Source: Diprion similis
Taxonomy: Eukaryota; Arthropoda; Insecta; Hymenoptera; Diprionidae
Direction: 5' to 3'
Assembly (NCBI RefSeq): GCF_021155765.1
Contig: NC_060112.1
Location: forward strand, 10,230,001 to 10,294,000
DNA: 64,000 nucleotides
The position numbers and the translations under genes were made by a program. Below the pieces are notes generated by a model. That model was not told the DNA's origin and did not search any database. It saw only the letters and a list, made by a program, of their open reading frames with translations. Position 1 is the stretch's first letter; every line of letters begins with the position of its first letter. Below, in pieces: positions 4,571 through 58,133 of this stretch.

Positions 4571-7500
4571 TCAGTCGAATACGTTAGCCGCGGAATCATC
4601 GGACGAACTGCCGCTGCTCTCAAAGCTATCTTTGTCTTCGTTTGACAAGCTCGAAGAATGCTCGTTCTCTGATTCTGCGCTATCGATTTCCTCCATGACG
4701 ATCATCGGCGAGTTAGCTTCCGGATGACCCTCAGTCGGTGTTCCAAAATCCTGACTGTTGTGCTGTTGCGGTATTTCCGCCGGCAGCTCCGGGTAATTCG
4801 GATTCAAATCGGCAGTGTCGTTCGGCTTGATCTGATCCGACTTCTCGTCAGATTCAAGCTTGTCCGAGTCCTCCGTTTCCTTGGCTGGGACGTTGCTCAG
4901 CTGGAAAAATAAGGTACCGGTTCCATTGTTTATGAGCTTAATTACGGGGGCCGTTTTGAAAAATTTGCACGCGTTATTCCGAAAACAGAACAAATCGTGA
5001 ACTGGTACAGACAGAGAAAATATTTGTTCAATTTACTAACTATCATGTGTAAATGTGGCGACGGAAACGTTTTGCTGATTTAAACAAATGTTATTTGTCT
5101 TAAGAAAATATTGAGCAGACTGATGATTTGGACTGTTAAGCGAGACAGCGTTTTATGAATCAGGGAAACGTTTCTTTCTCGTAGTTTCGTCGGCATATTT
5201 AGTAAATTCAAGTTTTTTCTCCTGTGTGTAGACACGACTCCGTCAACTTGTGGTTCTTGTACTTTCTAACAATAATGAATTCTCTCCGATTCTAGTTGAT
5301 TCAATATCGCTTTTGAGCATAACTGTACGTCTCACATACATCGTATGTATACATTTTTTTGAATTCCTGAAAAATCGTCATGTTCTTCAATATTCATCCT
5401 ATAAGTAATAATACCGCATTTATTCTTAGAAGGATTCGAAAAAAATGGTCTTCTAGTGCTATAAACTAGAGATTTAACCTTGTAAGTCCATGCATCATTG
5501 TAGCTAAAAATACATTTAAGGGGCTGCCCTGGTCGAATTTAACGTTGTCGTACATGTCTTCAGATATCAAAATCCACGTATTTTAAACGCAAAAAGGGTT
5601 TAGCAGCCCCATTCTATACACAATTTTGAACAAAAAGATTCAAATACATTTTTATTTGTTACAACAATAAAGAAATGGCACGGAAACTCCAAAATCGCAA
5701 TAGTAAATTCGTATGGTTACCAATTGGACGCATCACGTTCTCTTCTATTTCTGTTGCATGTACAATGTAATTATCACAGTTTTGTTTTTAGATACCAATG
5801 ATTTCTAGGAACGTGTTTACTTTTAAGTTGTGGAGTCTTTTATCATTAAGTTGATGATGATAGTTATTAAGTCGGTATCCGTTATATGTGTTGGGTTGAA
5901 AAAAAAAAAAAAAAAAAAAAAAAAATGACCAGTGATGCACGTAATTGTACGATTGTTATAGAAATTGTAAGGTGTAGACGTACAGGAAATAATATAAACC
6001 ACAATGAAATTGAATAATTGGCTGTTGAGACACAAATTGCAAAAAAAAAAAAACAAAAAAAAATCATCCACTTTTTCAGCCATCTTATACTTCTCCATAC
6101 CCCTACAATTGTAGGACCGTTCGAGTGTTACTTCAAGTCTAATTACCTCTTCTTCTTTCTCGTAATATTAAATTCGTTTCATGCCAGAATCCACTAAAAA
6201 AGCGTCCTGCGAAGTATCTACCTGATTTGTAGTCTCCTCGGAGAAGGAAATCGGCGGCTGTTTTTCCGTCTCGAAGGTCTGTCCATCCTCGTGTTCCTGG
6301 GCAGTGAGAAGCTGCGGTATTCTGGACCTGTTCACCTCCAGCGTGACCGCCTCGGATTTTTTTTCATCGTCCGATCGGTTCGTCTCCCGGCGTTGCATCG
6401 GCGTTGGCGCCGGCTCGTCGAGGCTCAAGACCTCGGCATTCGCATCGTCCTTTTTCTGCTCAGCACCTAATCCGTTGAGCTCAAACGTGCTTGGTGTGCT
6501 TTTTTCGACCTTATCCACACCGTTCGAAACCTGCTCGTAGTCAACCGGCTGCAGAACATCCAACGCGATCGGAGATTGCTTCAGGTTCTGTTCAGGGTAT
6601 AGCGTGTAAATAAGGGTGCAAAAACTTGGCTTATGTGCATGTATGTCGGAGGGCTTTCGAGAATTATAGGCACACAAGAAGTCCCTTCATGCCCTCTGCG
6701 ATCACGTCTCACTACACGTCCTCGCGGACCTGGATCGTAGTCAGTGCTGCAGTTCTCGTATGCAATAAATACACAAAGAACTATGCATTCACTGAACTTA
6801 GGAACGGGGCGTGTAAGCGTTATAGGTAGGTACCTACCTTAGACGATGAGTGCTCAGCGAAGGCCTCGGCGAGCGCGAGGTTAATATCCTCCAAGGGTTC
6901 ATCGCCGTTTCGGATGTAGACCGGAACGTACCCAGGAATTGACGGCAAGTATTGCAGAGGTAGGGTGTCTGTGTGCAAAATTAAAAAAAAAGAACATCGT
7001 TATAATGTGTTTTTAACAACCTTTTATTTCTCATTAAACTTGTCAAGCAATTATCGCTATTTTTTTTTTACGCGGTGTTCTGTATGTATATATACATATA
7101 TATAGTGTGAACTAGAAATATTTTTTTCTAAAATCGATTTAGATTCAACTGAAACTCTACACATTCGACGATTCTACTGCTATAAATATGAAGTGCAATT
7201 TTTGGTCAGGTTCAAGGTTTTACTACAAAAACCTACTTATATATACTTTATACTTTATACCAGCATTACTGTAACTTCAACCTTGTAATTTTTGTCCAAA
7301 TTTAAGTAATAATGTACAAAATTTTGCTCAATATTAATCTTGAAATTTGACCAAAACTCGAGAAAGTACAATTGTACCGTAAGATGGATTTTGGCGAATG
7401 AAAGCAATGCGTTTTGCGAGGAAAAACTACTAATAATTGAAAATAGGTGTTTTAACGCAAGAACATCAATATACACCGTCTCACTCAGGAATATGCTCAT

Positions 7501-7885
7501 ATTCGTAAGTTAACACGAGTCACATTCTCTTGAATGACAAATGTCTCGTTTCTCTGATCCTGCGTGCACCGCGGGATTCACGCGAGGTGTGTCTTCGATC
7601 AAATTTCACTTCACAATTCCACTATTTTTTTTTTTTTTTACGAAAATGCGCAAGCAACAGATCACTTGTGCGGGTTCACTTCGATAGACAATTTACAATT
7701 AGATGATAGTAAATTGTGCGATTCGAGCATGCGTGATTATTGTTATTGTTGATAAGACAAAGATGCAGATCTTTGTCGAGGTACGTGCGTACGACCTGGT
7801 CAAGAAATATCCGGTACTCACTGGCGTAGGTAATGATAAGGAAGACGAGAATGAACCCCGACCGCAGCATCCCAACGGCTCGCAT
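4571..7885 (-). CDS. Acidic Ser/Glu-rich secreted protein, 296 aa, four exons
   Basis: Exons are 7885-7822, 6968-6838, 6587-6222 and 4900-4571, all with AG/GT borders and consistent phases 1, 0, 0. Exon 1 encodes a signal peptide (MRAVGMLRSGFILVFLIITYA). Exon 2 gives a short ordered-looking segment (LPSIPGYVPVYIRNGDEP). Exons 3 and 4 are hydrophilic and strongly acidic, ending in a Ser/Glu/Asp tail (SSSLSNEDKDSFESSGSSSD) and VFD-stop. Cysteine is absent from the mature part. Exon 3 can also run past its CAG|GTAGAT donor to a stop at 6168, giving a 204-aa protein that ends GMKRI. Exon 2 could also splice directly to exon 4 because both borders are phase 0, so isoforms are possible. I recognise no family. 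Many acidic and Ser residues suggest ion binding or phosphorylation, which is inference. Confidence 0.62.
5518..5612. repeat. Short element with inverted GGGGCTGC termini
   Basis: Within the last intron of the acidic-protein gene, AAGGGGCTGCCCTGG at the left end faces its partial reverse complement GGGTTTAGCAGCCCCATT at the right end, about 95 bp in total. This resembles a tiny MITE. It is non-coding. Confidence 0.4.
5899..5925 (+). repeat. Poly-A tract
   Basis: An uninterrupted A run of about 27 bases lies in an intron, with a second interrupted run near 6042-6062. These could be simple-repeat slippage or tails of old retrocopies. No adjacent retroelement is recognised. Confidence 0.8.
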
Positions 7886-13800: not shown

Positions 13801-15207
13801 ACCAACAAGGGTTACAAAGGGACTTAGTTTCTAAATTTTCCTTCGTGTAAATTCAACTCCGAGAGGTCGATCACTATTGTAATCTTATGAAATTTTTGTC
13901 ACCTCCTGTAGTTTCATACAGTCCTTGTGAGTTTTGGAATCTGTTTTACTTCTTTCCAAACTTTTGTAATCCCTTTTGATTTTTTATGATGTCTTTGTAA
14001 TAACTTTGTAACGACTTAGAATCTTGGTAATCTTTTCGGATTATATTGAATTTTTGTAATCTTTCGTAATCTTTGCAAGTAATTATGATCTTCATGATCT
14101 GTGTAGCGATGAACTTGAAGTTTCTGACGTTAATATGCGTAACGAAATATGAACAAAAAAAAATATCACACCGTACAACAACTAGAACTTGGTCGGAAAT
14201 AAGTCAGACTGAGGAATACAATCCAAAATGGTTGACGCAGCGTATACAGTTTATTTTTATATTCATACCTACATTTCGATTCACCGTGAGCTAGCATAAA
14301 GTTGATACTGATTTGCCAGTGTTCCGAAATACTCTTATTTAATTATCAAAGCAGTTCCTAATCAGATCGTAGAATCTTATTGTAGTCCCCAAATTTTTAA
14401 CAATGTTCAGTTTCATGGAGTCAGTGTAGCTTGCACGTTACGAACTGTGACCTCATACTGTTCTTTACTCTAAGTAATAGCTATCTCTCGCTGTATTATT
14501 AGTCTTATCTAACGGCACACGATGCCGTTGGTGCAAGAGCTGACTGTAAAACGGTGTAAAATTGTATGAATTAAAAACATGCAGCACATTATTTTCTTTT
14601 ACTACACATGCATCTAGACTTGAATTCATTCCTTACACTGTACGGCTGTCAAGTTTCTAAGTCTTTCTTTTTTCTTACATCATAAATTACTTTTTTTATT
14701 GTCAATCTATTCCCCGTAAGTTCTTTGACTAATGTAATGTTAAGATTTTTTTTTATGATTTTCAAGAAACAACTAATTGCGCGTAAAGCTTTGCATAAGC
14801 ATTTGTAGAAATTAATAAACCTATTGTTTCATTAGCGATATGACGGGAGTAATAGAACAACAGTATTATTATAGTAATTAGATGGTAAAGATCGTTTTTC
14901 CTCCATCTTCTCTTTTCCAGCATATAATCTCAACTATCGCTATTTTTAATTTCGTTAAAACCTTTTTAGATGATACTAGTAGCATCCACTAATGTCTTTT
15001 GTTAAATTAGTTCACGAAATGACTTTTGAATTAAAGTTACCAAAAAATACAAAATCTACTTATACTACGATAATTATTCAGGATTAGTCTCACGACAGAA
15101 CCTTATAACTTGAATTATCTCAAGCGAAAAATTTGGATTCTGCAATCTCCGTAACCCCGCCTTTATCGACTTATGATCTCTATAATCGTAATCAGCGTAC
15201 ACTGTTT
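7886..15207. other. Long AT-rich intergenic region, no supported gene
   Basis: About 7.3 kb without a convincing gene. A 77-codon plus-strand frame at 8309-8542 has mildly coding-like composition (for example NLEPHLPGPRST), but it has no signal peptide, no splice context and sits in the upstream region of the 7885 gene. A TATA microsatellite-like stretch lies near 11680. Everything else is short AT-rich frames. Confidence 0.5.
7925..7934 (-). promoter_or_regulatory. TATA box candidate upstream of the 7885 start
   Basis: The reverse strand reads ACATATATATTAG about 40-50 bp upstream of the ATG at 7885. The spacing suits a short 5' UTR as in the other cluster genes, but the AT run is not a perfect TATAAA. 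Confidence 0.45.
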
Positions 15208-17664: not shown

Positions 17665-17671
17665 TATATAA
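17665..17671 (+). promoter_or_regulatory. TATA box of the Ser/Asn/Gln-rich gene
   Basis: TATATAA lies 49-55 bp upstream of the ATG at 17720. This places a transcription start near 17695 and gives a 5' UTR of about 25 nt. Confidence 0.7.
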
Positions 17672-17719
17672 TGGATAGCTTCCAATGTCGTACAGTTCTC
17701 TTCAAGGTTTCATTGCAAG

Positions 17720-19452
17720 ATGTTAGTGTCGTCAATCGTTTTATTTTCGGTGGTTGGTGTAGCCATCTCTGCACCGGCGCCATCAGTGCCGTTCCAGGGA
17801 CTCAGGCTTGCAGGTAATTTATAACATTCAATTTATAATATTCACCCGGCATCGAACTGCCATACACAAAACTACAAATACGTTTGAGTACAAAGTTTTT
17901 TTTTCGACATTTCAATGATGTTTCACTGCTTCTTCAGACGATACACGACTTTTATCAGACCGTTATCCACGTGTCAAAGTAATTGTTTATGTTAGCCTCA
18001 TTATTTATCAGACACATTTTTCAGAAAATCAGTGTTAAAAGTCATTCAGATTTCGGTATGAAATACGGTGGCCTATCATCTCTTCAATCTTAATTACAGA
18101 ATACTTGATCAATCGATTCATGTGAGATAATTTATGCTCCAGAACTACCTGCCCATTCTTGGTTATTTACATTATTAGAATTTTTATCGCGATTAGTTTT
18201 TCCTGCTACCGCAGTCATATCAGAATTTTAAAAGTACAGTAAATCCTGTTTTTAGGTGGCAAGGTGGAGTCTTCGGCTTCGTCATCTAGTTCATCCTCCG
18301 CATCTTCATCGACGTCGTCATCCTCTTCTTCGTCGTCAAGTTTCTCTTCTGGGGATTCTTCGTCGGCCATATTGAAACCGACGTTTGCCCAAGGCCAAGG
18401 ATCCGAAAACGTATTTTCCGTCGGACAGGCGGGCGCAAATTCCCAATCCAATACAGCAAACTCTTATGGCAACGAGAACTTCAACGTCGACTCGCAAGGC
18501 CAATATTTTGGAAATGTTGGATCTTCCGCCGGACAGATCGGTTCGACTAATGCAAATACCAATTTTAATACCGGATTCTCAGACGCAAATACGAACCTGA
18601 ACTTGAACTCGCAATCCATCGGGCAAAGTGGCAGCCAGCATCAAGAACAACAGAACCTTAATGCTCAGCAATTTGCGAACGCTGGTATTCAGCGGGGAGA
18701 TTCCGCCGTGCAAGGTTCCGGAGCTGTTGCGAATGCTGGACAGAGCCAAAATCAGGGCTCGAACGAAAATAACGGAGCTGATAACTTGGGCGGAAAGATA
18801 AGTTACTACGCCCAAAGTGGACCCGTGGTACACATTGTGAGGGCTGACAATGACCTCGGCGTCACAGGATCAGGCAACAATCAAGGATCTGGATCCGTCA
18901 ATGCCGCTGGAGCCGTTGCCAATGCGGTATGAACAATCCTGTTTTTGCACATTCGTAATTAAGAATGCTAGTATGTATAGTATACAACATGGATATTTTA
19001 GATAATCGGTCTGAATAATCATATCAGACAAACGTCTTAGAAAATTTTTATCCTCATTATACATCTCAACTCTCTTTTTGATTGCAAAGCAATTCAACCG
19101 AAAAATATCGTTGCAGGGTCAAGTTGGCGGGCAATTTCTTCAGGGGGGTCAGAACATCGGATCTTATGCGAACGCTGCAAATCAACAGTTGGAACATGCA
19201 GAAGCCGATAAGGCAGATTTTGCAGGCACGCAGACCGGCTACAGTAATCTTGGCACCACCCTGACGGGAGAAGAGATCCTATTCGATGGAGCTTTTCGCG
19301 ATGAGGTTAAAATTGGTCAAGCCGGAGGACACCAGAGTTCTGCATTTGTTTCTGAAACTAGCTCAAGCGGAAGCTTCGGCGGTTCCGAATCTCAAAGCAG
19401 TAGCTCGTCAACCTTTAATGATAATTTTTACAACCATGGATTTCCACTCTAA
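17720..19452 (+). CDS. Silk-like Ser/Asn/Gln/Gly-rich secreted protein, 366 aa
   Basis: Three exons: 17720-17813, 18256-18926 and 19117-19452, with clean GT/AG borders and phases 1 and 0. Exon 1 encodes a signal peptide (MLVSSIVLFSVVGVAISA) plus a short APAPSVPFQG start. Exon 2 opens with a block of about 30 residues that is nearly all Ser, written with mixed serine codons. It continues with Asn/Gln/Gly/Ser-rich irregular repeats (NANTNFNTGF, DANTNLNLNS, QSIGQSGSQ). A less repetitive patch, ISYYAQSGPVVHIVRADND, lies at about residues 212-232. Exon 3 is again Gly/Ser/Gln-rich and ends in a Ser tract and NHGFPL. There are no cysteines. Composition resembles silk or other extracellular fibre or matrix proteins, but I cannot name a family. 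Decayed paralogues occur downstream near 28.4-29.3 kb. Confidence 0.82.
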
Positions 19453-19677
19453 TGCTTAACTATACTAACCGATTGTAGAACCTATCGCTATAAGATTCAT
19501 TGCCTCAATACTAATGTCAACTGCGGATTTCAGCCTTACCTCCATGTATATCAATTTACGACGTGTGACGAAGAGTTGCTGAAGTAAATTTGCAGTATTA
19601 TATAAATATTTTTATGCTTGGATAAACCCAGTTGCAAAGAAACCAAAATTAACCAAGCCGTTACAAAAGATACGATA

Positions 19678-19683
19678 AATAAA
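19678..19683 (+). terminator. Polyadenylation signal AATAAA
   Basis: AATAAA lies about 226 bp after the stop codon of the 17720 gene, on the same strand. Confidence 0.55.
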
Positions 19684-23892: not shown

Positions 23893-26351
23893 TTATAAAG
23901 ATAGGACGAACCATCCGCCTCCTCCTTGGTTATAACCACCAAACTGTTGACCGTATCCACCACCTCCATGATATCCACCTCCGCCTCCGTAGTGTCCTTG
24001 GCCTCCACCTCTACCGCCGCCATACACGCCAACAGGCACAACAAATATGGGGACTGCAACAGCACCATATCCGCCACCTCCTGAAAATAAGGTTGCAATA
24101 TCTAGATTAATTTAGACTTACTCCCCCCGTTGCTTTGGTATCTATTCTGGTTTTTTCCGATCTGAATGGAACCTGTGCTTGCGGGATGATAAGAGAAATC
24201 GAATTTGAAACATGCTAGAGGTGACACACCAAAAAAATGGTGACACTTGTTAGCGAGCTAAATGACCGAGTGCGGAAAATAATTGAATTTTATTTGATAA
24301 TTATTAATAATATTTAGGGAAGTCAACTCAATCGAAACGATGCATCAGATGTCAAGCTCTCCCGCGTAGAGTGATAAATCGAAATTGTGTTGTTATTGTG
24401 ACTCGTGGTAGTCGTAAGGCAAACCGAAAATCTCGCGCATGCGCAATCGGACAATTTAGCTACGTAGTTTCACGATTTTCCCTCAGTCGGTGCTGAGAAC
24501 GCGGAAGAAGAAGAAGGAGATGCTGAGTGGATTTGGAGGATTATAGTGAGATTGAATGTCTGGAAGGTTACGATCGATTGACACTGATCGTGAGGGTGTG
24601 GATATCGAGATACTGGTGAAGCAAGTACACTTGGAAAAGATTCTGATTTCATATAGAGTGATTGTTTCCTATCTTCAAGGTAAAAATGCTCAAGATCAAG
24701 GTCACCACTTACCACCATAAGAACCTGAGGGGTATCCACCGTATCCGCCTCCACCTCCGCCTCCGCCTCCACAGGAGTAGCATTTTTTGAATGTTGTTCT
24801 CTTGCTACGGATCTTCTTTAGCTTTTTGGTTTTACCTACTGTGACATCGCGGTTCTCAGAGACAATAGCATCAGTTTCAATCTCCTTCGGGGTCTCCTTC
24901 GAATCGGTACTTTCATCCGTAGCATAGTCTTCTCCTAAATTCTTGGATAGGTTTTCCGAAGTGACTTTTTCATCGTCTTCTTCGTCAACAAGAAGAAGTA
25001 CAGAAGCTAAGGGTCCTGAAATTCAAGGTTTCCGCATATTGTATGTATTGAAAAACTATATCTCACTGACGGGTTATTTTTTTACTTGAAGCATTTGATG
25101 CTTTTTTTATTTCTAAATAGTAATGTATAAACCTAGTTAAGTTCCAGAAAATTATTGAAGAGACAGTCAACAGTTTTGGTTTCGATTTGTGGTCGGATGT
25201 AATCGTTGATCTAGTATAACATTTCGAAATTCAACTTTCAACTTATCACAATATTTTTGTGGGTTATAGCTCAAACGTAACTAACATTTAAAATTTGATC
25301 GGATCTGGCTTCATGGCAGTTTTTTTCTTTAGGGTTCTGATCGAATAATTTTTACACATTCCACTTTGAGACTCTTCAGAAAAACTAGCTCGATGTTCTA
25401 CTGATTTTCAATATTTTGTATATGCAATATAAGTTGACGTTACGTCATCAAACAATTCGAAACAATATTTAACTTCAATGCAAAAAAGTTAAATCACGTT
25501 TTAGTTTAATTTTATTACAATTTTCGGTAAATTCTACGACGACTTAGTTTTCCAAGCAGTCAGACCGTCTTCACGATAATATCCACGTACACGTAATAAA
25601 ATTTCAAAGTGTTGTCTTTCAACGTGTCTGTCCGTCGCGACGAAAATTCTGTGAGTATGTTTATCACATAGATTAATCGTTAAACACACCGATGATTTCC
25701 GGGCTGCTATCGGCCAGCGTATTTTCACCATTTTCATCGGAAGTGGCAGTAGTTTTGTTTCTGACGGCGAAGAGATTGACCAGGTAAACGATTCCATAGT
25801 GTTCACTCGCAGCCGGAAGTGGCGGAGGCTTGAGTTCGGTCGACAGTGTGACCACATCACCATTATTCGCAGCAGTTGTACCTTAGATAACAACAATAAT
25901 ATAATAATAAAACGAATCAAAAATTTTCATCACACATCCTGTTACAGAGGCTGATGCTCAAGTGCTTCTTGTTATCAGAGTACAAAAATGTTGTATTTGT
26001 GTAACTATACTCTGGGGCTTGTAAGTAGGATCTCTAACGGCTTTCTAAGCTTTTTGTTTTAGCTTTTGAAATTTTACTTCATCCAACAAATGAGATCGAT
26101 GCACAGATTGGATCAGGCAAAACACCGAATTAAAGACGATCGTTTGTTAGATGCTACACACTGAACTAAGCTATCGGTTTTACAGTATTGAAAAAAATTT
26201 GAGATACAGTGAAAATTGACTTTGATTTGACTGAATCTTGATGAATTAGGATTATTCAAAGTTTACCTTCCGTTTGGACTGATTCGCCGGAGACAAAGAG
26301 GACGCCACAGCATCCCAGCACCAAGAGACCCAGCACTTGAAGTTTCCACAT
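23893..26351 (-). CDS. Block-structured secreted protein with Gly-rich tail, 255 aa
   Basis: Exons are 26351-26267, 25881-25690, 25015-24713 and 24080-23893, all phase 1 at the junctions. Exon 1 encodes the signal peptide MWKLQVLGLLVLGCCGVLFVSG. Then come a short Pro-containing segment with YGIVYLVNLFAV, an acidic stretch at about residues 103-150 (VDEEDDEKV), a basic stretch at 154-170 (KTKKLKKIRSKR), a CYSC pair at 171-174, and a Gly/Tyr/His-rich tail with runs of Gly and GYHGGGGYGQQFGGYN. The tail contains a hydrophobic insert (AVAVPIFVVPVGVYGG). The donor of exon 2 is the weakest part of the model. An alternative upstream donor (AATG|GTGAAA) also preserves phase, and reading through gives a 98-aa protein ending IIGVFND. 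Gly/Tyr blocks are common in cuticle and glue proteins, so a structural role is inferred. Confidence 0.65.
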
Positions 26352-37254: not shown

Positions 37255-40200
37255 TCAGGGCGTTTCTATCGGGGCGACATCCGGATCTTTCGATTCCGTC
37301 TCGTCAGGAAACTTGGGTATACCCATTGGCTTAGGCTCTTCCGGGGTGGCTGAATCCTTGTCTGTCTTTGGCGGTTTCTCTTCGGTCACTGCCGGCGTTT
37401 CAGCGTCCTTGCCCGGCTTTGACGGTTTCTTTTCGGTCGTCGCAGGCTTTTCAGCGTCCCTCTCCGGCTTAGCCGGTTTAGAGGGTGCCACAGGCTTTTC
37501 TGAGTTTGCTTCCGAGTCCTTCGTGCACGGTGCGACCTCTACTCTGATGGTGTGAATCATAGGCGCTGGAGTCGGCGAGGCTTCCGGAGCTTCGTACCCC
37601 TTCGGAGGAGCATAATTCGCTGGAGCGGGATGAGCAGTTTGTCCTGATGATGGCCTGGTTACCGGATGCACGTAAGCTGGGTGATGGGCGTAAGACGGAG
37701 CACTTTGAGGAGCTGCGAGATTCACAATATTCGTATGTCAGCTGGAGTGTTGTTGATAACAATGCTTAGTATCAATTGATTCTGATGAAGAGTAATTTTA
37801 CGAAGTTCGATCTACATACTTTTGAATAAAGCAAATCCCAATCGAAATTTAAAATTGATGGTCGGAGTATAGTTCCAGATAAATTCACCCAGTTTTTTAG
37901 TCGTTTACTTGTATGATATACCCCCGTAAAGTAGAAGCCATACCATTCGGAAATGTGAGAATTGTTAAACGAGACAGAGAGAGAGAAAGAGAGGGGGGAG
38001 GAAAAGAGGGAGAATGAATAACCGACTGAATCAATGAAAGATGGTTTATTATGCCCAAGTCAAACTATAAGGCAAAAAGTGTATAAGCAACTTGATCACA
38101 ATTTTTAATAATAGCAAGAAAGGGAGAAAGAGAGAGAGAGAAAGAAGATGATGCCCTCCGAAGATGATAATGATTTGCTGCACGTGCGATGGCGGTTAGT
38201 TAAGTCCTGGTTGTCCTAAGCAATTTGGTCGCTTGGCGTCTCACCGGAATTTTTCTCTTTTAGCAGCTTCGCGATTTCATTTAGCTGGTTGGCGATATCC
38301 GTGAGCTTCTTATCGGTTTCTGAAGGCTTCTCGGGTTCCTCGTCATAGTATGAGGAGGCAAACCAGGATCTAGCGTTCCTGATGAGAGGGAGTAATTCTG
38401 CATTGATTTGCGTAGTTTCGGGTTTTCGTCGGCTTCCCAAGTAACCCACGTCCGGTGTTGCTGAAATGACAGTTTGTTAGTCGTGTCAGAATAAGTGACG
38501 TGCTCCAGTCGTGTCGTGACTATACATATTCACTCATTTCAACGAATAGAACTGCTGACTATTTTTACAGCTTTTAACACAAATGACGTACTGCAATCGT
38601 TATCACTGTATTATACTTCAGACATTCTTATAAATATGCTACACGTTGTAGAATGCAAAAATATTTTCACATTTCAGAAACGTGAAAAGGGATTGCGGCT
38701 TTTTAAGCGTGCATACCACACACGTAGAATTTGTTCATATTCGCGGAATGCCAGGCTCCGATAATACCGGAGGTCAACCAAGCTACACCTGTGCAAGCTG
38801 GATAGCCAGGTCTAAAAAATAACCATCATGATACAGTGTCGCGTTTTTTCATGACAAAAAGTTGAACGCTTCATCACATATTATGTTATAAGCCTTTTTT
38901 GTACTCGTATTAGGTATGTTTATTCTCGGGTAATGAAATGTGACTAATAATTTGCAAGCCCGTCAAATTTAGCTTTCGTGCAATACTCGTAACTGTGTAT
39001 TATTTCATTTTGCGCAGTCTTTGTACAGCGGTAAAGACTGCCTAGAAGTTTCCATGGAACGAATCGCAGGGAATGAAAGATGATGTATTTACAGATTTGA
39101 CAACGAAAACTCCCATTATCATGTTTGACAGGACTTGGAGACATCGTTTATTTTACTGTCAAATCAATCAATAATTTACCAGTTAAAATTCTTTTCACCA
39201 TAGATAAAACAATGTTTTTGGAATACTGCCAATGAAGAAGATTCTCGATTTAAATGACTTATTCTTGTTCGAATTTGTTGAAAAACTTATTTGATCGTAT
39301 AGCTGTTATTTTTTTTCACTTGAAATACATTTTTCGTATATGATGACATATCGGAAGATAATATAAAACATATATTCAAACGAATCATTTTCTCAGAACA
39401 TGAATAATACACTGTATAACCTGAGTCAGAATGTCAGTGCGATGCAAATGCGACAGAAATGAATCATTAAAAACATAATTCATATTTTACTCACTTCGTA
39501 AAGATTATTTTTATGCCGTTGTTGTCCGACTCAATAATCTGTCACGTCACGATTGACATCCGTGCATTCTCATTTGTAACAACATGCCCGTCGACGGTTT
39601 ACCTTTTTTTCCTAGCTACTGTTTCTTTGTACAGCAATAATGAGAGTTTAGTCAGATAATTCAAATTTATTTATAAATATTATTTATTTACAGTTACACG
39701 CTACACTATCTGACAAGTATCGCGATCATTCGTGTTACGTGATTATCCTGGCCTTAAATTCAAGATTTCACAATCGACGAATGATACCGTTCACTGAATA
39801 TTTATATTTTAACGCGATGTTAGTAGAAGTAAAGATTATTCAAATTCGAATGAAATGCGATATGAATTTCTCCATCTTGCATCATCAAATTAACCTAAAA
39901 AGTTTCAACTGCCAAGTTTATATTCGTGACAAAAAGAACATTTGTAAAATCGTTGTTGACGACTGTCTAAATATAGATTATAGATAAATAAATTGATTCC
40001 AGGTAATGCTACCTTAAAAAATTTCCTTTGGAAATTGTGAACGCTGTTTGTCTGTATTCAAGTATGTAACTTGAATCGGAATCTAATAGCAATGACTACA
40101 GGCCTGATCCTTACAACTGGGTTGTATCTTCTAATTATTTTTTTTCTTACAGTTTTATCTTGTTACAAGAACGCTCTCTGGCTTATTATCATTATATGAT

Positions 40201-40386
40201 CGTAACGAAACAGTTCTTTCGGTGAAATTATGTACATGATAATGAGACGATGCGTCAGAAACTAAATACGCACAGAATAACAATGTCAAAAAAAAATCTT
40301 AGACAAAGTGTGAAATTAATACCTTTGCTTTCAGCGTAACCGATGATGGCGATTGCCGCGAAGAGGAGGATAATTTTAAACGTCAT
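37255..40386 (-). CDS. Coiled-coil plus Pro/Lys-repeat secreted protein, 245 aa
   Basis: Exons are 40386-40323, 38460-38245 and 37712-37255, phase 1 at both junctions and summing to 246 codons. Exon 1 is a signal peptide (MTFKIILLFAAIAIIGYAES). Exon 2 holds basic and acidic stretches, then a helix with leucine/isoleucine heptad spacing (KLTDIANQLNEIAKLLKEKN) that could form a coiled coil. Exon 3 opens with a His/Tyr/Pro segment (YAHHPAYVHPVTRP). It then carries about three degenerate 16-residue Lys/Pro/Glu repeats (KPERDAEKPATTEKKP, KPGKDAETPAVTEEKP and a third diverged copy) and ends in an acidic tail. Exon 2 has a strong internal donor (TCCG|GTGAGA). Reading past it gives a 102-aa protein ending GETPSDQIA. 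One cysteine is present. No family is recognised. Such repeats suggest an unstructured polyampholyte. Confidence 0.72.
37976..38010. repeat. GA-rich microsatellite in an intron
   Basis: Interrupted (GA)n sequence, with a second run near 38122-38147. Both lie in the last intron of the Pro/Lys-repeat gene and show no coding function. Confidence 0.7.
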
Positions 40387-44600: not shown

Positions 44601-45096
44601 TCAAGAAAAATTAACGTCGGTAAAGTTACTCAAGAATAAAATTAGCTAAACCATAATAGAAGAATATTAATAGAGTAATTTGTATGATGTAGTTAAAATA
44701 ATGAGGTGGTTATACTTTAAAATTGAGTGTTTGATAAGTTGTAATTCTATCACATGAATTTCTCCAATTGTCTGTAACTAGATCAGCTCAAGTGACATAC
44801 TGTTTACGATGATAAGGATTTATACAGCAACGATCAATTGCTGAAAAAATATTCTGCGATGGACTGTCGGAGGAAGTGGAAATCATCTCGATTCAATATT
44901 TGCGTGTTAACTAATTTGAAATTTCTTAAATACGAGATGATTCTTCTCCGAAAAGCCATATCAGTACAACAATGTCGGACATCGTGTTCCACCTGGACTC
45001 CTCGAATCGTGCAATTGAGAGCTCTGGCAAAGTATTGTTGCTTATTGCGACGAACGACGTCTGCAGAACTGAAGCGCAGACAGAGGTTACCGATAC
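41680..45096. other. Intergenic DNA
   Basis: No supported gene. Near 43800-44010 the DNA is less AT-rich, and two reverse-strand frames are open (for example GQVYVSGSSGTETDDRS). A short plus-strand hydrophobic frame starts at 44011. The conflicting frames prevent a call. Confidence 0.45.
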
Positions 45097-45104
45097 TATA
45101 TAAG
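45097..45104 (+). promoter_or_regulatory. TATA box of tandem gene copy A
   Basis: TATATAAG sits in a block of about 100 bp that is clearly duplicated upstream of copy B. Shared elements include GTTACCGAT just 5' of the TATA box and CCCAGTCATT or its variant CCGCAGTCATT about 20 bp 3' of it, near the expected transcription start. Confidence 0.75.
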
Positions 45105-45266
45105 TTGATGGGTGGCCAGTCCCCGCAGTCATTCGCATCAGCGTCCAGAGTGTAATAAGACCAGACCGGTTAACATTCGTATTAAAGTGCCTTAATATCG
45201 TAAAAGTTGAATAAGGAACCCAGCAAAGTTTCATTCTCTTCTCAACAGAACAAGTTCTCCTAAAAA

Positions 45267-48200
45267 ATGGGTGTCAACTGGATTTGCGCCCTTTTTTGCC
45301 TCCTAGCGATAGCGAATATTGCCATCGAGGCGACAGCTTCGAAGCCCGAAGCATCAAGTGAGTCGATGTCTTTTAATACGTTACGTAGTTTTCAGAGAGT
45401 TCTTAATTTGCTCTGTCGGAATTCTGTGATACCAAATTTGTTTTTCACTCCCGATTATTTCGACGCTGTGGTAATGACCGGGCGTCGGCTGTCCTACTGA
45501 GGAATTCACTTATCGCATATTTTAACGATTATAAAAGAAACGACGCATCAGTAAAACCTGGAATCGCTGATAATTATCGTTTTCCGATAACATCAGCTTC
45601 CGTTTTTATCAATGCCTGTAGGCACTATACTGATTGGAGTATTTTCCTCCTGAGTTTTGTTGCGATACTTTTTGCGGATATCCGTGATTCAATTAGTAAT
45701 TTTAGTATTTAAAAATAAACATCTAACGGAAGTGGGACGAGCCGGCGACGAAAAATTCCTACATATCTAGACGCTATTTTTTTGGCACAAATATGCACGA
45801 TGCGTCTCGTTGTGCAATCTTGCGTTTTACCAACATGGATATGCTACCTTGAACCCGATAACCCATTAACGCGCGATACAGATATTTTTAGAACAAGTTT
45901 GCGCTGCACCTTGCCTCATGCAGGCTTTATCTTTCAATTCGTGAATTCGATTTTTACCCTTCATTTTCGCAAGAAATAATAAGACGCTATGAGATCAATA
46001 TTTATAGCTATGCATTTCCAACAGAGTAGACGTAAGTAATGGGCATGTATTTGCCGAAAAATCTTGAATGAACTTGCGAAATATGTGGTTAGTTTATTGA
46101 CCAGTCAATGTTTGCGTCGATATATCAATATCCAAGCACATGCTGCCATATTGAATGGCTGATGTATGGCAATTAAGATATATATTTATGAATACACGAC
46201 GATCACCTGTTTTTCATTTATCGTCATACGTGAAACATACATTGGTTTTATATTTTACATGTATTTATTGGTTCTTCTTTCATGCCACGCGTCAATTTTT
46301 ACGTCTTGATAGTGCAGCAGTTTTATTGCGCCGGCATGCATGGGTTTTTACGATCTTTTCAGAAATGTCGTCAGAAAGTCATAATTCCGCTAATCGTTTA
46401 CATTAAGACATATCTGTACGTGTAGAAAACACGAAATCGCAGTTTTACCAGACTAAACCAGAATCCCTGGAAAAACATTCGTTTGTATTCGTGCAAGTAT
46501 CACGCATATGGATAAATTCAAAAACAATATATCGCGTTTCTAATGGCGTAAGGTCGTGACTGCCATTTTGCGACGTTTTTTTTTTTTTATTGAAAAAAGT
46601 AAAATGGCGTACACATATATATATATTTTTTTTTGATCGTATTTATGCTTAAAATATAAAAAATATGGTCAGAAACGTTAAAATTGAATAAAAGTTTAAT
46701 CAAAAGAAAAAGGTCGTATGTATTGATAGATACAACTTTTTACTACTGAATCAACCATAAAAACCTTTGTCGACTAATTCCATAAGATCGCATCTGCCAA
46801 AAATAATTTTTACCACTTTTCTTGAGCTCGAGAATCATCAAATTCATCAACTAAAAGACAAAGTTCGTATATGCTCGTAGATACGACCTTTTGATTCTGA
46901 TGAAAATTGAAAAAATAATCAACTATGATAATTGTGTAAGGGTGTATAACCGCCAAAAATTATTATTTCTATTCCGAAACGGAAAAAAATGTAATATAGA
47001 TTTTACATCTGTTGTTGTAATTATATGAACAGCATTATTTTCGAGTCAAATCTACACCAATTTTGGTGGACGTACCTAAGCATATTGTAACTCTAACTAT
47101 TGGTTTTGTTATTCTTATTATCAGATTTGCAAATCTTGCCACAATTAAAAAAACAAAGAAAAAAAATTGCGGTCATGACCCTTTGATTTTATCTTCGTAA
47201 ATTTTTTTCTAAGACTTTTGAATTTTCTTAGATCGTTGGCGAAAAAATTCTGTTACAATATTGTTTTTTCATGTATACTTATTAATGGAAAAAGGTTGTA
47301 TCTGCCTAACATAAGACCATTTGCATTTATATTTTAAAACACTTGATTTACGCAATATAATTTCAAATGCAATATAGTTATCCTGTTGTTGCAATGACGA
47401 CAAGAGCCAAGATTTCGTCAAACGTTTACAATTCGTATACATAGGAATTAGATTAATGGAAAAGTAAAGTATGCGACAAATATTGAGTATAAACTCTCGA
47501 GCTTATTGTTAGCCAAAATAATGTGCAGAACCTGAAATAGCAAAGGACTCTAAAAAGGACTCTTTACACGCGAGATCGATGATCTCATCGTCGTTTTGCT
47601 GTATCATTTTTCATCCAGTTGTAATATGACATTAGAAAATATTTTCTAAAGCTTCGTTTTCCGCGGCCGGTGACTAAGGAAAAGGAAAATATGTAGATAA
47701 ACATGTTTACTGTTTTCTTGAAACAATTTAAAATATTAACGTTGTGCCATGTCGTGAAAGGTTTATTCAGCTGCGTGATATTGCGGAAAACCGTTATTGA
47801 CATGCATATTTGTATCTATACGTTATACGGTGTTCACAAGAGATGTGCTGTATGACCTTGATACGGGTTACCATAAGAGACTGCCCCGCGTATAAACAAA
47901 AGCATCAGTTGAATAAATGCGTGTCTTTGTGATCGAATGAAATTTTCTTGACGGTGTCATTTTCTTCATATTTCAGTTAGAGAACGGCGAAGTCTCAACG
48001 AGTTGGACTCGGAAGCTGCTTCGATGGTCAGGAAGAAACGGGGATTTGCTTACACCAGTACTTCGAGCAATTTAGGTAATCAAAATCGAAAGAAGTTCAT
48101 AGATTATAGTCTTTCCGGAGCAGTTTGGATAGTCGTCGAAATGATATCACCGTTTTGAAATTAAAAAAAAAAAATTTTTTGGGAAGCTTTTCCCACTTTT

Positions 48201-50950
48201 TCGATCAGTTGAATATTTAACAATGACAAGATAGAAGATCGACACGTTGATTAACAATGAGTCAAGTTGGTCTGGTTTTTAATTAATTTCTACTATTTAG
48301 AGGAAATAATTCAAAGTTTCCGACAATAAGAAAAAATTTAATCTATCATATTTGTTTTGACATTTTTACGCCTGTGCATCCATACTAGTTTCGAAATTTT
48401 AGTGAATTTTGCTTCGACACAAATTGTTTGTAATACATAGTGACACTGAGCACTTTTCCCGTGAACAATGAAAAAAATATGAAACTGGCTTTCATTTGGA
48501 TATTTTATAGTAAACACTGCGATATGACAATTGTTAAATTTTTGTTCCTTCAAGCCCTTATCGTTTATGAACCAATTATGAATTGAACCTTGATGATTCT
48601 CATATCTTAGTTTACCCTTGAACATATCCAAATGGCTATCAGTCCAAGTTTTGACCCTCAGAGTTGGACGAAAGTCGATGGGTTAGCGCAAATGTAGTCT
48701 TACACTCGCCTGTAGTACTTTCAACGAATTTCTTCGTTTATGATGCTGTCGAATTTAATGAGCACTACTCAATTTCCGTAATTTCTACAGGAACCGGTGG
48801 AGGAACATCCCAGACCGTAACCAGCGGAGGCGGTACAGCGGTTGTTTCGAGCAGCTCTTCCGGTAACCCTTCAGCAGGAGGCTACTCTTACACGACAAGA
48901 TCTGATCCTGATAATCCAGGACAGGTTATATACACGTACACAGATTCTTCTGGAAAACAAGTTACCGGCCGTGCTCCAGCTGAAAGCATACAGTCCAACG
49001 TTGGTGGTTTACCTTTTTCTCCTTATCAGAATCAAATTCCTAATTTTGCGTTTAACTTGCAAGCTTTCGTTCAGGAATATATCCAAAGCATTCAAGCTCA
49101 GCAGCAGGCTATCCAAGCTCAGATCCAGAGTTTCTTGCCAAAGTAAGTTGAAACAAATTTTACTTTCACACTCATTGCGTAGTTTAGGTATTAAGCTTAC
49201 ATGTTACTAACGACAAGTGTGCATTGCATCAAGTAAACGTCCTTTTCAACAATGCTTCAAAACCTTACTTCCTGTTCCTTCAGTATCGTTCCGTGAACAC
49301 TATGGTGATGTTGGCCTTTGTAATTAGACGGTAATTGTTCCTTAAACAAGTACACAACCTTTGAACAACGTGTTCATTCACTCAAAGATCGCACTTATTT
49401 CTAACTTGCATGAAACCACTTGTATATTAATTTAACGACACAACAGTTTATATCCTTATATTTTGACAACTATGCATGGTGTCTGGTATTTCTATCTACT
49501 GCAGTGACGGGGGTTTTCGACCATTATTTATTTATTTCACACATCGGATCCAGTCATTTGCTTTTTAACTAACAAACATAATGTGAATCATGAATATCAC
49601 CTTTGCTTTGTGTATGCGAGTCAATATCAGGTTTACAAGCAGTTTTGCATCGACCAGTAAAACAGTGATAAGATATTTCCTGAGTAATCATACGTCGGTA
49701 CAATTAAAGCGGACCCTGTTTTATCGCATACTTTGAAGTAGATACGACCGATACGACGTACACAACGTGCTTCGGAAGTTTTCATTTCGTGTTAACTTTT
49801 CATCGATATATCACGAACGAGACTGTATGACCTATACGCTTTCAAGGAGGTTCAGCCCCTGTAAATTTCATTCGACCTAATCATCGCGAAGCTTTGTAAG
49901 ATTCATACAATATCAGCAACAGCTTTTTGTTGTTGAAGCTAATTAATATCGAATGAAATAAGTACAAAGAAGGCTAAACCCATTTGAGGCAACCTTTCTT
50001 CCCACCATTTCCTCGAGGTGCTTTTCACTTTCCTGCACCAAATTCTCTTGGTGTTGGTTCTTCGGCACTTCTTTCTTTTCTTACGCTCCCGTTCGAAGCC
50101 GGGATAAGCGTAACGGATACTCTTAGGCCCGTGGACAGGCATTCATGACGGGCCTTTCCGGGCTGGTCTTGGCCCAGGCCAAGAGCCTACTCTTACACTT
50201 GGGTATCCAGACCCAAGTTGACTATGGGAGAATCTAGAGGAGGTGCAAGTCATACCAGGCGGCAGCATGATGCGCCCAATTATCGGCGGTTTCAGAATCA
50301 TCAGAGGTGACGGTATCACCCAGAGGTGACAGGGTCAAGGGACTAGCGTGATGAAATGACATTAAACTCGAATACACATCGATCAAAGCCCTCCCGCTAT
50401 TTTCAACAAAGTGTTTTTTCTGTTAAACAATAATAGGTTCGGCGGTATGAATAATTTCCCGGGATTTGGAGTACCAAATTTTCTCCCAAATAATTTTCCC
50501 TTCGGCGGTAATAATGATGCCTCCCGCAATGGCATGAACCACGGACCCAATCCCGACGGTGGGGTTGTCTTTACCTCGACCACTGGCGGCGCAGCTACTG
50601 GAACCTCGCAGACGGTGAGATTTTAATTACAGCATATATATTCTCACAAAGGTGTCATCGGACAGTCTTTTTTAAATATTTTTGCGAATCAATACGTCAC
50701 ATTATTCACTTTTCTATGAGAGAAAAGTTGCTGATCAACGTTCTGTGTCATGTGAAATTGAAGCAGAAAATTTTTAACTGTTCAACAGAGTTCCGGTGGA
50801 GGTCAACCGGGAGGTAACTTCTATTCAACCTCCTCAAACTCCTACACATCCACGGTAATTGGTGCTGATGGTAAGCCTCACACTGTAAAAACAACCAGGA
50901 CCGTCATAAATGATAACGGAAAAATAACATCCAACGAGGTGACAGATTGA
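45267..50950 (+). CDS. Tandem copy A: secreted Gly/Ser/Asn/Gln-rich preproprotein, 293 aa
   Basis: Five exons: 45267-45357, 47977-48075, 48791-49142, 50437-50614 and 50789-50950, with phases 1, 1, 2, 0 and a total of 294 codons. Exon 1 is a signal peptide (MGVNWICALFCLLAIANIAI). Exon 2 contains two furin-type sites, RERR before SLNE and RKKR before GFAY, so a propeptide is probably removed. Exon 3 has a Gly/Ser-rich start, a motif SDPDNPGQVIYTYTDSSGK, and a Gln-rich helix-like end (QSIQAQQQAIQAQIQSF). Exon 4 is Asn/Phe/Pro/Gly-rich (PGFGVPNFLPNNFPFGG). Exon 5 ends with IGADGKPHTVKTTRTV and NDNGKITSNEVTD. The donor of exon 3 is a perfect GTAAGT that overlaps the stop seen if it is not used. 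The mature part lacks cysteine. Silk-like or matrix composition; no family recognised. Confidence 0.78.
46708..46890. repeat. Pair of related short hairpins in intron 1 of copy A
   Basis: At about 46708-46740 and 46861-46890 two imperfect hairpins share the pattern AAG-K-TCGTAT, about 10 bases, ATAC-R-AC-Y-TT. A half unit (AAAGGTTGTATCTGCC) recurs near 47291. They suggest that part of the 2.6-kb intron is repeat-derived, because the matching intron in copy B is only about 0.5 kb. Confidence 0.45.
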
Positions 50951-53900: not shown

Positions 53901-55460
53901 TTATTAATGTTTACCAATGAACTGCGTACCGAGTTCTGTGTTCCATGGCTACGATGTACCTTAAAAAGAATATGTACAGTGACTTTAGTCTGTAGTCTGT
54001 ATTTGTAAGAGTAGACACACTCTCCAAATTTACATAGCGCCTACCTGGCCATTAACTCACAGTATCATACGGTTTTTACGTCGCCTCAGCTGCTACCATC
54101 AAATTGACCATTGACTAACAGTCCATTTTTTCACTGCATCCACGGTTTCAAATTTACATCATTAGCTTAGTTTTGAATAAAATGTTCCAAATCTTTCGCA
54201 CAAGTTTAGTGTTTGCGTTAGATGACAATGCCACTTGGCAATCAGTGGAGCCAAGTTCGACTTGTTATTTCCTCAATTCAATATGTGTCTGAATTCACCA
54301 TGTTAGATGCCTTGTAATACTGCCACTAGATGGAGTTTCTTCTCGAAAACAAAACTTCGCGATGACATGACTAATAAAAATGTTAACGACACGAGTAACG
54401 CTCGCTGATAGGTAGCGGCCAAAGTTTCATATTGAGTACTTACTGCGTGTAAGTTGTAACTTTGGTTACCTACATCTTGATGAGGCTCATTCGCGTTATT
54501 AACCTTCAAGACTTCGAGGGCTTCAAGGAATCTTCCTGGTATAACGCTGAATGTGAGCTAACATGGCTTGCAATTGGAGACATTGATGATAATAAGCAAA
54601 GCAGTTGGCGCTCGATGTCACCTTGGAGCGAGCTACTTTCATAAACTTCTTTTTTTTTTTAGTAAGAAAAAATCAGCTGTTCAACTATTTAACAAGTAAA
54701 AATGCCACGAACGTCAGAGCTGTTTCTAAGACGTGGCTGCTCAGTTTAAACAGGTGTAGCCTGGTTCATGTCCAACGTTTCAGGTTACTACGAGTATGCG
54801 TAATATTTCAAAAAAACAAATGGTATACGCGTGCTCGAAACTTTGCTATATAGTCCTTTCCAGGTTTTTTAAATGTGACAATATTTTTATACATCTCGGC
54901 GGGCATGTTTATATTAATGTCCAAGACGTACTATACTTGTAACGATTCCATTATGCCGTATGTTTCATTGGAATAAGTCAGCAGTAACTGATTCTGATAC
55001 AAGTAAAGTACTTTCGTTTCAGAAAAAAATTGTCTTTTGACTGTTAAGTAATTTGCAATTTCAGAACAAGTCTTTTCACTTTCAAAGGACGCATCCGAAG
55101 ATGGTTAACAACAATTAAATGGCATATTCGCAGTGATCATCGTTCTGGACAATAGTTAGTAATTTGCATTTCAGTGGATAATTTTTCTCCAATAAAGTAT
55201 AATAAATAATATCGAAGGAGTGTAAACTGGTATTTCATGTTCATTCGTAAGTTGGATTAGACAGTAGAATAAATAAAATGGTTCTGAGATCAAATCTTTT
55301 GGTTATTGTCGGTAAAACGCAAGTGGCGAAATTGTTCTAGTGATTTCAAGTACGCTCAAATCATTTGATTGAGAATTTTGACAAAGCTGGCAAAGTATTG
55401 AGCCTCGTTAAGCCAAACGGGCAGCTACAGACCTGAAGTGCAAACAGATGTTACCGATCC
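50951..55460. other. Intergenic DNA between the tandem copies
   Basis: The first 2.5 kb is the duplicated 3' flank of copy A. The rest is AT-rich with no supported gene. Open frames such as 52727-53029 lie in the duplicated flank but are not conserved as frames in the second copy, so they are probably chance. Confidence 0.5.
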
Positions 55461-55467
55461 TATATAA
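55461..55467 (+). promoter_or_regulatory. TATA box of tandem gene copy B
   Basis: TATATAA follows GTTACCGATCC as in copy A. The downstream CCCAGTCATTAGCATCAACGT block is also conserved. The core promoter therefore looks intact even though the gene shows damage. Confidence 0.72.
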
Positions 55468-55634
55468 CCTGATGAGTGGCTGCTTTCCCCAGTCATTAGC
55501 ATCAACGTTCAGAGTGTGATAAGACTACACTAGTTCGCAATATCATCAAAGTGTAGTCATATTGTATAAGTTAACGAAAAAAACCACTAAACCTTCTCCT
55601 TCCTTTTTAACACTACAAGTTTTTTTTGGCGAAA

Positions 55635-58133
55635 ATGGGCGTCAAGTGGACTTGCGCCCTTTATTGCCTTTTAGTGATAGTAAATATTGCCACTGAGGCG
55701 ATTCTCTTGCAGTCCGCTGGAGAAAAAGGTGCGTAAAATTTTTTAATATCATTTTAAATTGCCCCTACTTTTTTTTAACAGTTCTCATGTACGCTAACAA
55801 TGATGCCGATGTCTCCCAAGTCTCGACAAATTGGTAAAATGAGGGATCACGGAGTATTGCATTTTCGGTTTCTGATAACGTCTGGTTCCATTTCTGTCGA
55901 TACTCTCACATGATTTTATAAAATTTTTGCTAGCCTTGTATTGCGATATACTTCGCAACTTTTAGTGGCTCAATTTGCCTAATTTTTACTGATTTTCGGA
56001 GAACGAAGAAAAGAATGGAATTTGGAATTATCAGACAACGAAAAAGAGATGTGTAACCTTCTCTTAATATTCTTACGCGGTATAGGAAAATTCCAAATTC
56101 AATCTAAAATTTAAAGTATTTAATCCAAGATCTATGCTTTATTACTCAAACCCTGCCACTTCTTTTCTATTTGTCATCGACCCAAAACATCCATGGTCTC
56201 TATTCACGTGCAGTGAATTTTATAAATTTGCTTCAATTCTTTTGATGTTCGTAGTATCATCCCAGGAAGAATACAGCAGCTCAGATATGGACTTAACCGG
56301 GCAAACCAAGTCAACACGTAGTTCGTCAAGCAGGTCGTCCTCTCGTGGACCAGGAAACTCTTGGTCTTACAAAGCAGACACTGATTCTGAAAATCCTGGA
56401 ATGGTTAATTACTCCTACATCGATTCTACCGGAGAAACGGTCATCGGTACCGCGTCAGCGGAGGACTTTCAGGTCGAGATTCGTGCTTTTCTTTATTACT
56501 CCAATCAGTACGAAATTAATAACTTTCCGTCGTACGGCTTTAACTTTTGAGATTTCCTTCGGCAGAATGACAATCCTCTCAAAGAGCTGCAGGAATCCCA
56601 GGACTCCTTTCAACCGTAATTTAAAACAAATTTTACTTTTTTTTACAAATAAACCTAGTACATACGTGTGTATTGCAAGAATGCTTGTATCTAACTAACA
56701 ATCAACGCGCATGATACTGAAATGAACCTTTTTTTGGATTACGATTCATATTCGTATTTCCTGTTCCTTCAGTATCATTTTGTGCGTATGTATACTAGAT
56801 TAGAAACAAATTCTTTTGCAAATAAGTCTGCGTTGTTCAACCTACGCCTTAATTTAAGCGCCTGCAGAAATAAACCATGAATATCGTCACCCTTATTCTT
56901 AGACACGAATACGGTTACCTATTCATGTTACGACAAAACAACTCACTTTGTGTTTTGATCGTGAATCTTCACGATCTGAAATCTGAAAATGAACTTTCAC
57001 TTCGTGTTTTTTGGATGAGTACCTTTGGTGGTCCGATGAAAATTTTTGAACGTGATCAGACGAGGTTCGAATTTCGAAGATTCGCAAAACTTCAACAATG
57101 ACTTCTCATCTAATAAAACTAATCTAATCAAATTACAAAGCCTCACAAAGATGATGCTGGATCCAATTATTCTCGGTAATATCCTTTAATTTTCATATAT
57201 ATTTTTTTCCTGGTTGTGGTTCCTTCGGCACTATATTACTTTCATACTCTCATTTGAAACGACAAAAGAACTAGTAACTTGATATAAACCAGTAGAGCTG
57301 GACAGTCCCAATCAACTAAGACTTTCCGTGAACTGAATTTGTTAAAACATACCAAGGAGCGAAACTGTCTAGTATCAGATGCACTCTCACTTCACTCTTG
57401 GACCCATGGCTTTGTACTTGGGCATCCATTCTGAAATTGAGTATTATAGAATCTAGAGGTGGTGACGATATTCTGGTAACACTCCGAATTAACTAGCTTG
57501 ACATGACATTAAACTTGTACATCTCCAGATGAAAGTTCTACAATTATCTTCAACAGTATTATTTTGTGTCAAACAATAGGTCCTTTAATCAGAATAATCG
57601 CATGCGATATGGAGCTCCAGCCTTCGTCAACTTCCCAAACAATTTTGGACGTGGAAATAACAACATTTTCCGCAATGGCCATAGTTCCAATTTCAAGAAT
57701 CTAAACTCTGCTGGTAATACTGTGCAGAGTAGCGCCAGCGAAGGTCCAGGAATCAATTCGGTGAGCTTTTGAACGGCATAATGTGGTTTTGAAACAGCTT
57801 GATCGTGAGGTCACTTTTAGTCACTTTTCCTAATTAATACGTCACTTTGTTCGCTCTCCTAAATGTGAGGGAAGAGTTGTTAATCGACGCTCCATGTGAA
57901 GTGGAATTATATAATCAATAAAGTTTTCTATTTTTCTTTAGGCTTTACCCGGCGCCGATTCCAAATTCTCTCAAACAGCCTCCGGGTCGAAAAACAGCAA
58001 CAGTTACTCAACCTCCTCAAAATCCAACTCCGTATCGGGAATTGGTCCCGATGGCAAGCCCTACAGTCGCAAAGTATATGTCAACGAAGTAAATGATAAC
58101 GGAAAAGTGACTATCGAGAGGGTCGAAGAATAA
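55635..58133 (+). CDS. Tandem copy B: diverged, possibly truncated paralogue of copy A
   Basis: The signal exon 55635-55728 (MGVKWTCALYCLLVIVNIAT) ends in phase 1 as in copy A. The next usable exon starts at 55 bp positions after 56200, at 56255 (SSQEEYSSSDMDLTG), and carries SENPGMVNYSYIDSTGE, matching SDPDNPGQVIYTYTDSSG of copy A. A TGA at 56548-56550 interrupts the frame just before the counterpart of the Gln-rich end. Beyond it the frame continues and the old phase-2 donor (CAACC|GTAATT, after 56615) survives. A donor before the stop (AATCA|GTACGA, exon end 56507) would restore the frame. It joins exons 57580-57760 and 57942-58133, both open and phase-consistent, to give 239 aa. Without it the product is 129 aa. 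The furin-site exon is absent. Whether the gene works is undecided. Confidence 0.5.
56000..56053 (+). pseudogene. Relic of the furin-site exon in copy B
   Basis: GAGAACGAAGAAAAG, then GGAATT and TCAGACAACGAAAAAGAGATG, resemble exon 2 of copy A (GAGAACGGCGAAGTC, GGACTC, TCAGGAAGAAACGGGGAT). The acceptor AG is degraded and no donor follows, so the exon appears dead. Alignment was by eye. Confidence 0.45.

What the first reader, a model, noticed from the sequence alone, without database searches (positions are those of the whole stretch)
4571..58133. Cluster of secreted disordered-protein genes built on one modular plan
Seven gene models on both strands start with a 64-94-nt coding exon that carries little beyond a signal peptide and ends in phase 1. 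The following exons are acidic, Ser/Asn/Gln-rich, Gly-rich or Pro/Lys-rich. A shared phase-1 signal exon lets new low-complexity bodies be joined to a ready-made secretion leader, much as in known vertebrate and insect matrix or silk gene clusters. I recognise none of the families, so this may be an undescribed secretion or fibre gene cluster.
Basis: partly seen in the sequence, partly recalled or inferred. Interest (0 to 1): 0.85.

Follow-up and report, generated by a model that had tools for sequence, protein, structure and literature searches.

The report
Secreted low-complexity gene cluster, insect genome

Summary
The seven gene models hold up as predictions: first coding exons of 64, 94, 85, 67, 64, 91 and 94 nt, all phase 1, each little more than a signal peptide. 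G1-G5 have no relative in the genome, G6 only its tandem copy G7; no Pfam cut-off is reached.

The modular reading is only partly supported. Of 21 leader pairs only G6/G7 are clearly alike. Two of two JHBP genes examined on the same chromosome, unrelated and with a known domain, have 64- and 67-nt phase-1 signal exons. A phase-1 excess near signal-peptide ends is published (PMC1626468, PMC7259759; passages seen). Modular behaviour shows once: G6/G7 keep promoter and leader better than bodies and differ by one 1-1 exon with two furin-type sites.

Best reading: a local cluster of orphan, probably fast-evolving secreted proteins, likely structural or coat material, on ordinary secretory-gene architecture. 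Silk, cuticle, eggshell and gland roles cannot be separated without expression data.

The parts
4571..7885 (-). G1, 296 aa, acidic Glu/Ser/Asp-rich; exons 7885-7822 (signal, 64 nt, phase 1), 6968-6838, 6587-6222, 4900-4571; phases 1,0,0
   Evidence: composition; no relative in own genome
17720..19452 (+). G2, 366 aa, Ser/Gly/Ala/Asn/Gln-rich; exons 17720-17813 (signal, 94 nt, phase 1), 18256-18926, 19117-19452; phases 1,0
   Evidence: no relative of the body in own genome; exon 2 alone modelled without order
23893..26351 (-). G3, 255 aa, Gly-rich C-terminal part, one furin-type site RSKR at residue 162; exons 26351-26267 (signal, 85 nt), 25881-25690, 25015-24713, 24080-23893; phases 1,1,1
   Evidence: middle 148 residues without relative in own genome
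32407..35327 (-). G4, 445 aa, Ser/Gly/Ala/Asn-rich; exons 35327-35261 (signal, 67 nt), 35159-34904, 33421-32407; phases 1,2
   Evidence: no relative in own genome; exon 3 alone modelled without order except two short C-terminal helices of low confidence
37255..40386 (-). G5, 245 aa, Pro/Ala/Glu/Lys-rich with a 51-bp tandem repeat; exons 40386-40323 (signal, 64 nt), 38460-38245, 37712-37255; phases 1,1
   Evidence: no relative in own genome
45267..50950 (+). G6, 293 aa, Gly/Ser/Thr-rich; exons 45267-45357 (signal, 91 nt), 47977-48075 (1-1 exon with RERR and RKKR), 48791-49142, 50437-50614, 50789-50950; phases 1,1,2,0
   Evidence: furin-type sites; only G7 alike in own genome
55635..58133 (+). 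G7, 247 aa, Ser/Asn-rich tandem copy of G6 without its exon 2; exons 55635-55728 (signal, 94 nt), 56255-56531, 57580-57760, 57942-58133; phases 1,2,0; donor 56531 is weak, stop at 56548-56550 if it is not used
44899..50923 (+). Block A of a segmental tandem duplication (promoter, leader and bodies of G6)
   Evidence: 8 of 8 blastn pieces with E below 0.01 are collinear with block B
55036..58106 (+). Block B of the duplication (G7)

Best explanation
A local cluster of orphan, probably fast-evolving genes for secreted, low-complexity (probably largely disordered) extracellular proteins in a hymenopteran-like insect. Each gene has its own signal peptide on a short first coding exon; the signal peptide would send the chain into the ER, be removed, and the body be secreted to serve as structural or coat material (silk coat, cuticle, eggshell or gland secretion). 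The uniform phase 1 reflects the general tendency of introns to sit in phase 1 near the end of signal peptides rather than copying of one leader; the one clear family event is a segmental duplication that made G6 and G7. Shown here: gene structures as predictions, leader dissimilarity, the duplication, no Pfam family over its cut-off and no relative in the own genome for the parts searched. Inferred: secretion, disorder, fast evolution, material role.
For: 7 of 7 models with a hydrophobic leader and phase-1 first intron. 1 of 21 leader pairs clearly alike. 2 of 2 JHBP genes examined with 64/67-nt phase-1 signal exons and phase-1-compatible acceptors. Published phase-1 excess near the signal peptide cleavage site, also in arthropods and the Drosophila genome (PMC1626468, passages; PMC7259759, human genes, passages). 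Low complexity 0.62-0.90 in 6 of 7. TATA-like sequence (TATAWAW) within 180 nt upstream of the ATG in 6 of 7, against 16.9% of random 180-nt windows; within 100 nt 4 of 7 against 9.4%. dN below dS in 4 of 4 segments of G6/G7. Left neighbours are genes with SMC and Swi3 domains; on the right the first genes that I recognised are lipocalin-like, by eye, two of them with phase-0 first exons.
Against: No expression, proteomic or cross-species evidence. G1 is not low-complexity (0.19). The two lipocalin-like genes checked use phase 0, and 7 candidate signal exons at four odorant-binding-family loci were 4 in phase 0, 1 in phase 1 and 2 in phase 2 (not joined to domain exons), so 7 of 7 phase 1 is a stronger bias than my few local controls would give. 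Furin-type sites in G3 and G6 fit a pro-protein or peptide-precursor role as well as a structural one. The TATA distance of 180 nt was chosen after G6 and G7 had been seen.
Confidence: 0.65

Rival explanations
1. A true modular gene factory: an ancestral promoter plus phase-1 signal exon was duplicated several times and joined to unrelated low-complexity bodies, and the older leaders have diverged beyond recognition.
For: 7 of 7 phase 1; promoter plus leader of G6/G7 align at 72.8% over 316 columns, leader 16 of 30 aa identical against 36 of 83, 22 of 52 and 22 of 53 in body segments; the copies differ by one 1-1 exon; symmetric 1-1 exons also in G3 and G5.
Against: 20 of 21 leader pairs are not clearly alike, with or without 300 nt of flank; the same plan stands in JHBP genes.
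Confidence: 0.15
2. A silk or cocoon-coat gene cluster specific to this insect group, comparable in use to the caddisfly cadhesin (caz) clusters. (This is a special case of the best explanation.)
For: Short signal exon, long low-complexity exons, Ser/Gly/Asn-rich and Pro/Lys-rich bodies, clustering; most caz genes have a short first exon for part of the signal peptide and a long, often repetitive second exon, and lie in two clusters (PMC11092239, passages).
Against: No tissue data; G1 is acidic and not low-complexity; the sawfly silk of Nematus oligospilus is collagen-like (PMC12976744, passages); bodies are short and weakly repetitive (of four tandem-repeat rows in the window one lies in a coding exon).
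Confidence: 0.25
3. Secreted precursors (peptide hormones, antimicrobial peptides or pro-proteins) rather than structural proteins, at least for G3 and G6.
For: R-X-K/R-R sites: two in G6 and one in G3; 0 of 1000 and 4 of 1000 shuffles reach that.
Against: No such site in 5 of 7 genes; long low-complexity mature regions.
Confidence: 0.12

Closest known systems
Caddisfly cadhesin (caz) silk gene clusters, Limnephilus lunatus (PMC11092239, passages seen)
   Same: clustered, short first exon encoding part of the signal peptide, long low-complexity exons, little conserved sequence
   Different: two exons in most, Ser or Thr reaching over 40%, silk expression shown there; here three to five exons, mixed compositions and no expression data
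Lepidopteran sericins and mucins, Yponomeuta cagnagella (PMC9684489, passages seen)
   Same: secreted, Ser/Gln/Asn-rich, strongly diverging, duplicated
   Different: longer (sericins of 731-1595 aa in its table), repeats in tandem in sericins; the CXCY tail was not looked for here
Vertebrate SCPP matrix genes (recalled; only a search listing seen)
   Same: clustered, secreted, disordered; G1 is acidic and Ser-rich
   Different: SCPP introns are phase 0 as I recall; here the first intron is phase 1; S-x-E/D sites in G1 are not above shuffles (10 against a mean of 7.07; 163 of 1000 reach it)
JHBP family genes (PF06585), same chromosome
   Same: 64- and 67-nt phase-1 signal exons in the two examined
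   Different: a known Pfam domain, not low-complexity (0.16 and 0.22)

Membership tests
   7 of 7 predicted models
   1 of 21 pairs clearly alike (G6/G7); old divergence cannot be excluded
   2 of 2 JHBP genes examined share it; two lipocalin-like genes do not; few controls
Insect silk or coat proteins | expression in silk gland and presence in silk | not testable with these tools
   no RNA or protein data
Insect silk or coat proteins | secreted and low-complexity | tested here: met
   6 of 7 with low-complexity fraction 0.62 or more; secretion only predicted
Cuticular proteins with a chitin-binding (CPR) domain | Pfam chitin_bind_4 domain | tested here: not met
   not among the matches at E up to 1 of any of the seven
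SCPP genes | phase-0 introns (recalled) | tested here: not met
   first intron phase 1 in 7 of 7
Sawfly collagen-like silk | Gly-X-Y collagen repeats | not tested
   no search for such repeats was run

The most novel reading that the evidence does not exclude
An undescribed matrix or silk gene factory of this insect lineage, in which a conserved promoter-plus-signal-exon unit survives while bodies are replaced through symmetric phase-1 exons; G6/G7, caught with a better conserved leader, diverging bodies and a gained or lost 1-1 pro-peptide exon, would be its most recent product.
Probability: 0.15. Interest if true: 0.65.

Novelty: new member of a known kind. Interest (0 to 1): 0.35.

Why it matters
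If expressed together, the cluster would be a candidate source of an insect material (cocoon coat, cuticle or eggshell) in a group for which my paper searches found few silk-gene studies, and G6/G7 would be a small test case of leader conservation against body turnover. As it stands, the striking regularity is largely explained by ordinary secretory-gene structure.

Tried and rejected
A separate gene downstream of G6 and G7 ('G8', 'G9' in my notes) was considered because no signal exon was found for it; rejected when the phase-2 donor of G6 at 49142 was seen to fit its acceptor. Functional-amyloid-like repeats in G2 and G4 were considered; only weak periodicities were seen and no Pfam match. 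AlphaFold of G2 exon 2 and G4 exon 3 gave mean pLDDT 41.4 and 38.8; without an alignment this says little, so no fold search was run. A random-region control for the density of phase-1 signal exons could not be fetched. PDB search with G6: no match at E up to 1. Paper searches for sawfly silk genes or a described cluster of this kind showed nothing direct in their listings; that is absence in those searches only. Species: 269 Mb, listed kinase matches on 14 contigs (a capped list), CpG o/e 1.24 and TTAGG repeats recall the sawfly Diprion similis; recalled, not tested. The TATA scan was replaced by the controlled count. The G7 protein and composition used a wrong exon end and are replaced. The whole-length identity figures for promoter and intron are not used, because unrelated pairs in the same call gave 65-100%; one exon there was cut two bases too long.

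Full report
What was checked. The window is G000:C8:10230001-10294000 of a 269-Mb genome with CpG o/e 1.24, as in Hymenoptera by my recollection. I rebuilt the seven genes from splice sites and open frames. All seven start with a short coding exon (64-94 nt) that encodes a hydrophobic leader with few further residues and ends in phase 1. Leaders were judged by hydropathy, not by a dedicated predictor. Six of the seven appear in a mechanical scan; the seventh (G5) has a donor below its cut.

Corrections to the models. G6 first seemed to stop at 49146. A search with the exons near 57.6-58.1 kb found a second copy at 50.8 kb, and blastn showed 8 pieces with E below 0.01, all collinear, between 44.9-50.9 kb and 55.0-58.1 kb. 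A strong donor at 49142 joins G6 in phase 2 to exons 50437-50614 and 50789-50950, giving 293 aa. Between the copies dN was below dS in 4 of 4 segments (0.29/0.47, 0.61/1.02, 0.55/1.69, 0.58/0.90), which supports coding; the alignments were made on protein, which favours that result.

Are leaders shared? Signal exons were compared in all 21 pairs, alone and with 300 nt on each side, against 100 shuffles each. Only G6/G7 stood out, with no shuffle reaching the score. Of the other 40 comparisons the lowest were G1/G3 (exon only) and G2/G5 (with flanks), each reached by 2 of 100, and G3/G5 (with flanks) by 5 of 100, about what so many comparisons give. On protein level G6/G7 was reached by 0 of 500 shuffles; next were G2/G6 (15), G2/G5 (25) and G5/G6 (29 of 500). 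So one leader was not visibly passed around.

Is the plan special? In one 10-kb stretch of the JHBP cluster about 0.8 Mb away, both genes have 64- and 67-nt phase-1 signal exons with fitting acceptors. Two lipocalin-like genes (recognised by eye) about 65 and 82 kb to the right of the window have 111- and 114-nt phase-0 first exons; a third lipocalin-like place between them was not examined. At four odorant-binding-family loci 7 candidate signal exons were 4 in phase 0, 1 in phase 1 and 2 in phase 2, not joined to their domain exons. [quoted passage not shown] My local controls are too few to give a rate.

What the bodies are. None of the seven reaches a Pfam cut-off; the few weak matches are below it. 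G1, G2 (body), G3 (middle 148 residues), G4 and G5 matched only themselves in the genome, and G6 only itself and G7; that search scores only its best candidates. G2-G7 are rich in low-complexity sequence, G1 is acidic but not low-complexity. Single-sequence models of G2 exon 2 and G4 exon 3 show no helices or strands except two short C-terminal helices of low confidence in G4. G6 exon 2 is a symmetric 1-1 exon with two furin-type sites and has no counterpart in G7; G3 carries one such site.

Setting. To the left lie genes with SMC domains (SMC5-like by recollection) and a Swi3 domain. In the window two further secreted-looking genes flank the cluster (near 2335-2964 and 62287-60901); by eye neither has a short phase-1 signal exon. 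TATA-like sequences (TATAWAW) stand within 180 nt of the ATG in 6 of 7, against 16.9% of random windows; within 100 nt in 4 of 7 against 9.4%. G6 and G7 count as one event there, and the 180-nt limit was chosen after seeing them.

Judgement. The interpretation takes a general property of secreted-protein genes for a special one, though the few controls leave room for a real local bias. What remains is a cluster of orphan secreted low-complexity genes, a known kind of thing in insects, with function open.

Noticed in passing
window 2335-2964 (+): Secreted-looking gene in one open frame without Pfam match, near the Swi3-domain gene; no TATA-like sequence.
   Followed up: partly
window 62287-60901 (-): Secreted-looking gene, at least two exons with a phase-0 junction by eye, 3' end not resolved; no Pfam family over its cut-off.
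   Followed up: partly
L026:9188-L027:210 (-): A 341-residue open frame very rich in Pro, Ala, Glu and Lys beside a lipocalin-like gene, possibly its low-complexity tail.
   Followed up: no
G000:C8:11028689-11120339: Dense cluster of JHBP-family exons on the same chromosome.
   Followed up: partly
window 47977-48075: G6 exon 2: 33-residue 1-1 exon bearing RERR and RKKR, without counterpart in the tandem copy G7.
   Followed up: yes
window 56548-56550: In-frame TGA in G7 with alike codons behind it; a weak upstream donor may bypass it.
   Followed up: partly
window 37355-37479: 51-bp tandem repeat, 2.5 copies, in the Pro/Lys-rich exon of G5.
   Followed up: no
window 38244-38216 (-): G5 exon 2 stays open past its donor to a stop at 38216, so a shorter alternative product is possible.
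   Followed up: no
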